A stretch of DNA of 64,000 nt from Chrysaora quinquecirrha (lineage: Eukaryota > Cnidaria > Scyphozoa > Semaeostomeae > Pelagiidae). Under the pieces are notes generated by a model that worked only from the letters and a program-made list of their open reading frames with translations, did not search any database and had not been told where the DNA came from. This document shows positions 13,500 to 36,830 of this stretch, piece after piece (position 1 is the first letter of the stretch; the number at the start of each line of letters is the position of its first letter). The translations under genes were made by a program, and so were the position numbers. Location of the stretch: assembly GCA_014526335.1 (NCBI GenBank), contig JACTAT010000043.1:1030302-1094301 (forward strand). The letters run 5' to 3'.

Positions 13500-14984
13500 T
13501 TAAGAAGCCAGAGGCCGAGATTTGACAGACACAACGATGTCTCTTTCATCTTTCCAGCCATTAATTCCTGCTTGATTACTTGCAGAACACTTGTAAGTAT
13601 GGCTGTCATTCAACTGAACATTCGTTATTGTTAACCTTTTGCTCACTACGTATGCAGAGCTTGATGGAAGATTTGTTATTGTAGATGTGCCTCTGAAGCT
13701 TTCTTTGAAAAAAGAAATTGAAATTTTCGCATCAATGCTTCCTTCCTATTTATTTACTTAATATGCTTGAAGCTTATGCTGAATATAAGCAAGATAAAAT
13801 AAGAGAACCAAGATAGTCTAACTAAATCTTGCCACTTTACCCCATTTTGATTCATGTCTCTAGAGGGTTTTGCGGACATATTGTAACAAAACAACTGTAC
13901 AATTTCGTCGTCCAGACATTGATAATTCTTTTGATGCACATATTTCACCAGTTGGTTCAAAAGAAACTTAAATGACTGCTTTTTAATATCAAGGTATTTC
14001 GATATCTTGAATATATTTGATATCTTGCACAGATTTATCCCAAGCAAAGTGACGAAGTAAAGTGCTTCAGTTTCTATTCCGGGACAAAACCGCAACATAA
14101 ACCTATAGGAGTCTTGTTACAAAAATAGAAATTTCGTGGTCAATAACGTCACTTTGCCTAGGAATGAACTTAGCACAAGTTAGACTTAGTTCCCTTATTT
14201 TATCTTGATACGAGTGAAGCTAAAAATTTCATGCGGTTGTTTATCAACATCTTGCAGCCAGGTAAACAAAATATAAAACAACCCAGCATTTGTAATTTCT
14301 GTACAAAACAGTCCTGGTTACATGACGAGTCCGGCAGAAGAGTGTAACATCGTGGGCATCGTGCTATTGTATTGACTGAGCTAGACTTATAGAGCGAAGC
14401 GATCGAAACGCTGAAACATGCCAGTAATGCTTCAGCAACTGAGGTCTATTATGTACCTAGCGAGTAATAATAGTAGAACCGAAAGTAGTTATTCATCGTC
14501 TTCTTCGTTTACCTTGCAATAACCTCTTTGTATGTGACCTTGGTAGCTAAAATCTTTTTTTAGATGATTAGATGCAGCTAATGAATAGAAAGTTATATAT
14601 TTTTGTTGAATTAACGCAATTCTGCGTAGACTTCGAGGCTTCCTGGGGATGCCATAATATGTGAGGAGAGTTTTTCCCTGAAATAACAGCAAGCTTAAGA
14701 TATTCAAAACCTTAGTCTTATAAATACAATGGATATCTAAGAGGGACTATCGTGACAAATTACTCATATATAAAACAAACTAATATTATTGGACGAGAAA
14801 AGATAAAAAAGCACGGGGATTTCCAATTTTGTTGCATAGTTACCTGGAGCAAGATTGGTTGTATTTGTAATCGATAAATATGGACGTGGACTGCCTGTTG
14901 CAGTGCATTCAATGTTGATCGTGTCTCCAACATACGCATTTAATTCTTGTAATTCAGGAACAACTTTAGTTATACGAGCTGGAA
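13500..14984 (-). CDS. Mosaic gene exons 24-25: Ig-like domain and C terminus
   Basis: Exon 14844-14984 gives the first half of an Ig fold (NAYVGDTINIECTATGSPRP). Exon 13500-13702 gives the second half (RLTITNVQLNDSHTYKCSAS, then NQAG). The Y-x-C-x-A-x-N-x-x-G motif and the Cys pair are typical I-set features; the usual core Trp is absent. The frame ends VKSRPLAS-TAA at 13500-13502. No transmembrane helix or GPI-type hydrophobic tail follows. The stop is directly followed by GGTAATC, a donor-like sequence. Confidence 0.82.

Positions 14985-36830: not shown

What the first reader, a model, noticed from the sequence alone, without database searches (positions are those of the whole stretch)
13500..36830. 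Previously unfamiliar domain order in a complete 25-exon secreted mosaic protein
The sequence shows one continuous, phase-consistent gene encoding signal peptide, discoidin, ten EGF, two sushi, two HYR, a divergent sushi-like module, two GCC2/GCC3 modules and an Ig domain with no membrane anchor. The single modules are well known and sushi-HYR-GCC2/GCC3 combinations occur in SVEP1-like proteins. An N-terminal discoidin domain joined to a long cbEGF rod and a terminal Ig is not an order I can match to a named family. It may be a lineage-specific matrix or immune-recognition protein.
Basis: partly seen in the sequence, partly recalled or inferred. Interest (0 to 1): 0.75.

Follow-up and report, generated by a model that had tools for sequence, protein, structure and literature searches.

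The report
Jellyfish-type Polydom-like secreted matrix protein
The window holds a real, complete gene for a large secreted adhesive-looking protein; its unusual domain order is shared by a jellyfish, a sea anemone and a coral and fits the recently described Polydom-like family, although the binding domain at its front seems to have been exchanged several times in evolution.

Summary
On the minus strand, 36830 to 13500, 25 coding exons splice in frame into 1223 aa with one final stop; all 24 introns are GT-AG, 21 in phase 1. The order is signal peptide, discoidin, 10 EGF, 2 sushi, 2 HYR, a four-cysteine sushi-like module, 2 GCC2/GCC3 (TKE) modules, Ig; no membrane anchor.

The order recurs end to end in Rhopilema, Nematostella, Oculina and relatives of unknown organism. 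It fits the "Polydom-like" proteins (EGF-Sushi-HYR-TKE plus an extra terminal domain such as Ig) published for Nematostella mesoglea in 2025. Two relatives are named SCUBE2 in databases, but no CUB domain was found. The bilaterian relatives examined share the EGF-Sushi-HYR run without discoidin or Ig.

A point I met in no paper consulted: the same chassis also occurs with a PLAT domain in place of discoidin, in two duplicate copies elsewhere in this genome, a Montipora protein and a protein labelled 'Actini...'. On a tree of the shared core, PLAT needs at least three changes of state, and one PLAT clade is rejected (p-AU 1.4e-7). I read the family as matrix adaptors with exchangeable heads. 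Function is inferred.

The parts
36764..36830 (-). Exon 1: start codon and signal peptide (MKLAPWFALLCTFCSLVGAAVN)
   Evidence: model; hydropathy. Not hit by tblastn; homologues align a signal-peptide-like start here.
31221..36249 (-). Exons 2-5 (36174-36249, 33738-33828, 32390-32521, 31221-31368): discoidin (F5/8 type C) head, with phase-1 introns before and after it
23204..31037 (-). Exons 6-15, one EGF each (30870-31037, 29853-29987, 29029-29151, 28394-28528, 27172-27294, 26542-26673, 25711-25833, 24356-24481, 23799-23915, 23204-23335); exon 6 also carries a Thr/Pro-rich linker
   Evidence: each of these exons covered by tblastn.
21733..21936 (-). Exon 16: sushi 1 (6 Cys)
21195..21392 (-). 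Exon 17: sushi 2 (6 Cys)
19700..19936 (-). Exon 18: HYR 1
18562..18801 (-). Exon 19: HYR 2
17908..18108 (-). Exon 20: third, divergent sushi-like module (4 Cys), in the place where SVEP1 and tick relatives have a clearer sushi-like segment
   Evidence: No Pfam hit; position, cysteines and the W..P..(P)DC ending seen in the alignment; profile comparison weak.
17656..17745 (-). Exon 21: short two-cysteine linker before the TKE modules
   Evidence: not hit by tblastn on its own.
17261..17419 (-). Exon 22: GCC2/GCC3 (TKE, Ephrin_rec_like) module 1
15713..15883 (-). Exon 23: GCC2/GCC3 (TKE) module 2
13500..14984 (-). Exons 24-25 (14844-14984, 13500-13702): C-terminal Ig (I-set) domain split by a phase-1 intron, then stop codon
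   Evidence: The Ig of the C438 paralogue is also coded by two exons with a phase-1 donor after the first.

Best explanation
A secreted extracellular-matrix (mesoglea or basement-membrane) adaptor of the Polydom-like family in a cnidarian, most likely a medusozoan. Shown: gene structure, domain order, signal peptide without anchor, the same order in relatives, and a PLAT-domain exon in place of discoidin upstream of the same chassis in paralogues. Inferred: the calcium-stiffened EGF rod holds a ligand-binding head (discoidin here, PLAT in sisters) away from a Sushi-HYR-Sushi-TKE-Ig tail that docks into the matrix. Head choice would set what is bound at one end, and the tail would fix the protein in the matrix during epithelial remodelling and growth.
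For: Order DS-EGF(n)-S-S-HYR-HYR-S3-TKE-TKE-Ig in 12 of the 16 cnidarian-type proteins examined, the window's included (10 of these rows built the profiles). Of the other 4, P0243 and P0254 have PLAT, P0114 has ricin and a Pfam-scored discoidin but no third sushi, P0244 is a 661-aa piece without a head. Nematostella Polydom and Polydom-like proteins are mesoglea components that rise from larva to primary polyp (PMC12549020, abstract passage, section 8 part 1). PLAT-headed copies in this genome. Tree and AU tests. Six relatives (P0003, P0004, P0005, P0040, P0055; P0242) have a longest contig of only 3.5-3.7 kb, long enough for the whole frame, as spliced cDNA would be.
Against: No expression, localisation or binding data exist here for this gene or a medusozoan orthologue. 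The text of the 2025 paper does not say that a short Polydom-like protein has an N-terminal discoidin (figures and supplements not seen), and I could not match P0037 to one of its named paralogues. Profiles built from the window and P0001-P0005 alone find the Ig of the other 10 relatives at under 0.001 in 5, under 0.05 in 8, but poorly in P0044 (0.12) and Nematostella P0037 (2.9); the third sushi in none convincingly (best 0.022). The cnidarian set as one clade is only moderately supported (85/77 for 17 rows) and P0114 falls outside it. The PLAT head of the C438 copies rests on one exon each; splicing to the rest was not shown.
Confidence: 0.7

Rival explanations
1. A soluble immune-recognition protein: the discoidin head and sushi modules bind microbial or damaged surfaces.
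For: Sushi, HYR and discoidin domains occur in recognition proteins (general knowledge). The coral white-band-disease paper reports polydom/SVEP1 transcripts up and cites induction of Hydractinia Polydom by fungi and bacteria (PMC3836749, passages). Exchange of heads would also fit changing targets.
Against: Those reports concern transcripts labelled Polydom/SVEP1, not shown to be this DS-EGF-Ig type. Nematostella Polydom-like proteins are mesoglea components tied to polyp morphogenesis. No second discoidin-headed copy turned up in the stretches fetched from this genome, but these do not cover every HYR locus in full.
Confidence: 0.15
2. A SCUBE-like carrier that releases or presents a lipid-modified morphogen, as database names of relatives (SCUBE2) suggest.
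For: P0002 (Rhopilema) and P0037 (Nematostella) carry that name. EGF domains and TKE modules are shared with true SCUBE hits such as P0090, P0106 and P0113.
Against: No CUB domain in the window protein or in the 12 relatives scanned. Sushi and HYR are not among the Pfam domains listed for P0090, P0106 and P0113. The name looks like an automatic best-hit label.
Confidence: 0.04
3. A structural microfibril protein of fibrillin type.
For: cbEGF rod; many hits are named fibrillin.
Against: No TB domain (PF00683) in the Pfam scan, and the rod has only 10 EGFs. The insect hits named fibrillin-2-like that score best (such as P0006) are themselves EGF-Sushi-HYR proteins.
Confidence: 0.08

Closest known systems
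Polydom-like proteins of Nematostella vectensis (EGF-Sushi-HYR-TKE group; eLife 2025, PMC12549020)
   Same: EGF, Sushi, HYR, TKE in that order; no vWFA, no pentraxin, no sushi tail; an extra terminal domain such as Ig.
   Different: Section 8 part 1 names TSR and Ig as extra domains and does not mention a discoidin head in the short forms (the figure legend lists coagulation factor 5/8 among its symbols; figure not seen). The window protein is from another, probably medusozoan, cnidarian.
SVEP1/Polydom (canonical)
   Same: Core run sushi-sushi-HYR-HYR, a sushi-like segment, TKE-TKE.
   Different: SVEP1 has vWFA and TKE in front, and EGF, pentraxin and a long sushi tail behind; the window protein has no vWFA, pentraxin or sushi tail. 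Cores form a separate group (82/98).
Bilaterian EGF-Sushi-HYR proteins: insects and ticks labelled fibrillin-like (P0006, P0050) and an Octopus protein labelled vWFA/EGF/pentraxin (P0008)
   Same: EGF rod, then two sushi and two HYR; a sushi-like segment and TKE follow in the tick and Octopus proteins.
   Different: No discoidin and no Ig found in them by the family profiles.
SCUBE proteins (e.g. P0090, P0106)
   Same: EGF domains and TKE modules; signal peptide (recalled for SCUBE).
   Different: SCUBE has CUB; the window protein has none and has sushi, HYR, discoidin and Ig.
Discoidin domains of factor V/VIII, neuropilin, DDR, lactadherin
   Same: Sequence family and, by the model of P0004, fold of the head.
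   Different: Those proteins have other partner domains; the ligand of this head is unknown.

Membership tests
Polydom-like (Nematostella group, PMC12549020) | EGF-Sushi-HYR-TKE in this order | tested here: met
Polydom-like (Nematostella group, PMC12549020) | No vWFA, no pentraxin, no terminal sushi tail | tested here: met
   None in the Pfam scan of the whole protein
Polydom-like (Nematostella group, PMC12549020) | Additional N- or C-terminal domain such as TSR or Ig | tested here: met
   C-terminal Ig: Ig_3 1.1e-9, I-set 1.2e-8
Polydom-like (Nematostella group, PMC12549020) | Present in mesoglea, rises at larva-to-polyp transition | not testable with these tools
   Reported for Nematostella; no data for this organism
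SVEP1/Polydom (canonical) | N-terminal vWFA and central pentraxin | tested here: not met
   neither found in the window protein. A canonical-looking core lies elsewhere in this genome at C357:511813-526398; the pentraxin search of the genome did not complete
SVEP1/Polydom (canonical) | Sushi-Sushi-HYR-HYR-Sushi-TKE core | tested here: met
   the third sushi by position and cysteines only
SCUBE | CUB domain | tested here: not met
   no PF00431 at E up to 1
Fibrillin | TB (8-Cys) domains between cbEGFs | tested here: not met
   no PF00683 at E up to 1
Discoidin / F5_F8_type_C domain | Sequence family and fold of the domain | tested here: met
   (7.5e-14 for the window's own domain); fold tested on relative P0004

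The most novel reading that the evidence does not exclude
Cnidarians carry a phylum-wide secreted chassis (EGF rod, Sushi-HYR-Sushi-TKE core, Ig tail) on which the N-terminal ligand-binding head has been exchanged repeatedly between discoidin and PLAT, probably by recombination in the phase-1 introns that flank the modules (shown on both sides of the discoidin head, and on the upstream side of the PLAT exon). Heads would be the swappable specificity part of a matrix adaptor family, with both versions kept in one genome.
Probability: 0.5. Interest if true: 0.55.

Novelty: new member of a known kind. Interest (0 to 1): 0.36.

Why it matters
It adds a probable medusozoan genome-level member to a matrix family whose short forms I found described only from a sea anemone, and it flags a misleading SCUBE2 label on two relatives. 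The EGF-Sushi-HYR run shared by cnidarian, arthropod and mollusc proteins suggests an old animal matrix protein. If the head exchange holds up, it is a natural experiment in swapping the binding end of a matrix adaptor, and the ligands of the two heads become a direct, testable question.

Tried and rejected
Rejected: two genes fused by a wrong model (phases, homologue coverage and full-length relatives say one gene). Rejected: SCUBE and fibrillin membership. Rejected: missed EGF exons (no tblastn hit outside the model at E <= 1e-3).

Inconclusive: HMM-HMM comparison of the third sushi with sushi 1, sushi 2 and the SVEP1 segment gave probabilities of 8, 16 and 1.5, against 98.8 for sushi 1 with sushi 2; the case for sushi rests on position and cysteines. 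The structure list was filled by the discoidin domain, so other parts of the model were barely tested. Model of P0004: mean pLDDT 73.6, pTM 0.30, so no claim on overall shape.

Weak lead: a potential N-glycosylation site lies in one discoidin loop in 8 of 12 heads compared (6 at one alignment column, 2 five columns on). That this loop corresponds to a membrane-binding spike of factor V, where glycosylation weakens lipid binding, is recalled, not tested.

Little use: NCBIfam scan (0 families); polyadenylation signals in the 2 kb after the stop (no AATAAA; TATAAA at 13416, ATTAAA at 11871); tRNA scan. Paper searches that returned 0 papers. The Hydra mesoglea proteome paper has no occurrence of polydom, SVEP1 or sushi in its main text (term count and passages). 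PMC12960093 (passages) and PMC8480191 (passages; a SVEP1-labelled gene is enriched in Turritopsis reversed polyps) say nothing on this architecture in what I saw. The Hydractinia Polydom paper (Schwarz 2008) was not read; known only through citations.

Limits and rows dropped: the tool lists 120 of 568 hits, 120 of 135 and 63 of 63. In some searches only the 7992 candidates sharing most words were scored; one search did not return Nematostella P0037, and many bacterial HYR proteins rank among the relatives. The first tree used 31 rows, among them P0007 and P0056, which the second (33 rows) did not. P0244, headless, was not counted for head state, but by its default row label it was among the 13 rows of the discoidin-clade test; P0114 (discoidin by Pfam) was counted and left out of that test. 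The groups were named after a first tree had been seen, though the labels come from domains. P0001-P0005 are called medusozoan kin from the tree; only P0002 has a named organism.

Full report
What is there. On the minus strand from 36830 to 13500, 25 coding exons join in frame into 1223 aa with a single terminal stop. All 24 introns are GT-AG, and 21 of 24 (intron 1 and introns 5-24) are in phase 1. From exon 6 on, most exons are one domain each. Homologues cover 23 of 25 exons by tblastn and nothing outside the model was hit. The Pfam scan gives discoidin, EGF, HYR, Ephrin_rec_like (the GCC2/GCC3 or TKE module) and Ig above their cut-offs. Sushi is just under its cut-off in this protein and above it in 7 of the 8 relatives first scanned; it is not listed for P0001. 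The third sushi-like module has no Pfam hit. No stretch beyond the signal peptide looks hydrophobic enough for an anchor.

Relatives. A search of 5.8 billion proteins gives 568 hits, of which 120 are listed. The nearest are P0001 (EukProt, organism not given; 60% identical over the C-terminal half), P0002 from the jellyfish Rhopilema (46% over 98%) and P0003-P0005 from collections without organism names. Nematostella P0037 follows further down, with P0040, P0044 and P0055. A second search added mainly SVEP1-type and single-module proteins; a third, from P0037, added P0242, P0244, Oculina P0245, P0243 (organism name cut at 'Actini') and Montipora P0254. The alignment of ten is collinear from head to tail. 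Family profiles, built from those ten, read DS-EGF(5 to 13)-S-S-HYR-HYR-S3-TKE-TKE-Ig in 12 of the 16 cnidarian-type proteins examined, counting the window's; the profile counts 9 EGFs here where the exons show 10. Among all 296 proteins then held, no row other than these 16 had a discoidin with HYR, or an Ig with HYR and TKE. The search takes only relatives of similar length that share short words, so other phyla are not excluded. For six relatives the longest contig is only 3.5 to 3.7 kb and can hold the whole frame, against 23 kb here, which fits spliced transcripts.

A control on the profiles. Profiles made from the window and P0001-P0005 alone find sushi 1, sushi 2 and TKE 1 in all 10 other relatives tested (worst E 2.9e-5). 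They find the Ig at under 0.05 in 8 of 10 (P0044 0.12, P0037 2.9), HYR 1 at under 0.05 in 9 of 10, and the discoidin clearly in 4 (P0037, P0040, P0044, P0242) with P0055 at 0.0034 and P0245 at 0.097. The third sushi is not recovered convincingly in any of them. Position and cysteines carry the case for the weak modules.

What it is called. NCBI names P0002 and P0037 SCUBE2, but no CUB domain was found in the window protein or in 12 relatives scanned. A 2025 study of the Nematostella matrisome, of which I read part 1 of section 8 and further passages including the legend of figure 4, describes an expanded Polydom family. It includes four shorter Polydom-like proteins with EGF-Sushi-HYR-TKE and extra terminal domains such as TSR or Ig. 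All Polydoms are reported up in the primary polyp mesoglea (PMC12549020). The legend lists coagulation factor 5/8 among its symbols; the figure was not held. The window protein meets the stated features of that group and fails defining ones of canonical SVEP1, SCUBE and fibrillin.

Deeper kinship. The canonical SVEP1 hits read TKE-S-S-S-HYR-HYR-TKE-TKE by profile, with a sushi-like segment between the last HYR and the TKE run seen by eye. Insect and tick hits and an Octopus protein read EGF rod-S-S-HYR-HYR, with a further sushi-like segment and TKE in the tick and Octopus proteins. The EGF-Sushi-HYR run is thus shared by cnidarian and bilaterian proteins, while the discoidin head and Ig tail were seen only in cnidarian-type ones. 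In a tree of six concatenated core modules (33 rows), SVEP1 and two polydom-type loci of this genome are one group (82/98). The window joins P0001 (100/99), then Rhopilema and its kin (100/98), which suggests a medusozoan. The cnidarian set of 17 rows has only 85/77, and the long-branched P0114 lies outside it.

This genome. The window lies in a 328-Mb assembly of 740 contigs. A search for HYR gave 17 matches. Two copies on contig C438, 89% alike on average in 28 aligned blocks over some 38 kb including neighbours, read EGF(4 by profile)-S-S-HYR-HYR-S3-TKE-TKE-Ig, with the Ig on two exons as here. Exon borders were read in one copy: acceptors that fit phase 1 lie before nearly all modules. Whether they are a recent duplication or two haplotypes laid end to end was not settled. 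Upstream, where the window gene has discoidin, an exon in each copy encodes the start of a PLAT domain (2.0e-5 and 2.6e-5, both above the cut-off). It begins after a phase-1 acceptor and ends in phase 2; the following PLAT exons were not modelled with certainty. P0243 and P0254 also carry PLAT heads (2.4e-7 and 3.3e-11). Another locus, C357:511813-526398, shows a canonical Polydom-type core half a megabase from the window gene.

Head exchange. On the core tree the PLAT-headed proteins need three changes of state, and starred branches force all three. Holding the four PLAT rows together costs 83.6 log units (p-AU 1.4e-7). Holding 13 rows labelled discoidin together costs 90.7 (p-AU 1.8e-6); that set left out P0114 and, by its default label, included the headless P0244. 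P0243 (PLAT) groups with two discoidin proteins at 100/98. The head columns are not in the tree. The count cannot tell gains from losses; an old pair of paralogues with repeated losses is an alternative.

Verdict. The gene belongs to a described family. The exchange of heads on a fixed chassis is the part I met in none of the passages read from five papers or in the listings of the searches made; these cover open-licence papers only.

Noticed in passing
window 16112-16989 (intron 22): A DNA element with 65-nt terminal inverted repeats, 95% complementary, 748 nt between them; an open frame 16266-16757 on the + strand lies inside, with no Pfam hit above cut-off. Looks like a short DNA transposon.
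   Followed up: partly
window 25389-25403 (intron 12): A short interstitial piece of the TTAGGG telomere repeat; GGGTTAGGGTTAGGG occurs once and in none of 100 shuffles.
   Followed up: partly
window 53331-55457, + strand: Pieces of a BEL/Pao-type retrotransposon: DUF1759 (2.3e-4, under the cut-off) and Peptidase_A17 (2.6e-6).
   Followed up: partly
window 7926-8665, + strand: Reverse-transcriptase-like fragment (RVT_1, weak, 0.016) that reads like a Penelope-type element (impression, not tested), next to a 10-bp minisatellite at 7689-7880.
   Followed up: partly
window 1048-1503, - strand: Exon of a formin-type gene: Drf_GBD 1.7e-10.
   Followed up: no
window 41580-42488, - strand: A 302-codon open frame upstream of the gene, Ser-rich to the eye, without any Pfam hit above cut-off.
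   Followed up: no
L019-L026 (G000:C438:1142001-1182000 and 1341001-1381000): Two copies of a region of some 38 kb, 78-93% alike in 28 aligned blocks (mean 89%), on the same strand about 199 kb apart, including a zinc-finger-like neighbour gene: recent segmental duplication or haplotypes joined in the assembly.
   Followed up: partly
L034-L036 (G000:C357:505001-535000): TKE-S-S-S-HYR-HYR-S-TKE-TKE-TKE run on the + strand, the order of canonical Polydom/SVEP1, about 0.5 Mb from the window gene; vWFA not looked for, pentraxin search did not complete.
   Followed up: partly
P0001 (EukProt relative): EGF rod longer, 13 EGFs by profile against 9 by the same profile here, with near-identical repeated EGF pairs in its sequence: rod length seems to change by tandem duplication.
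   Followed up: no
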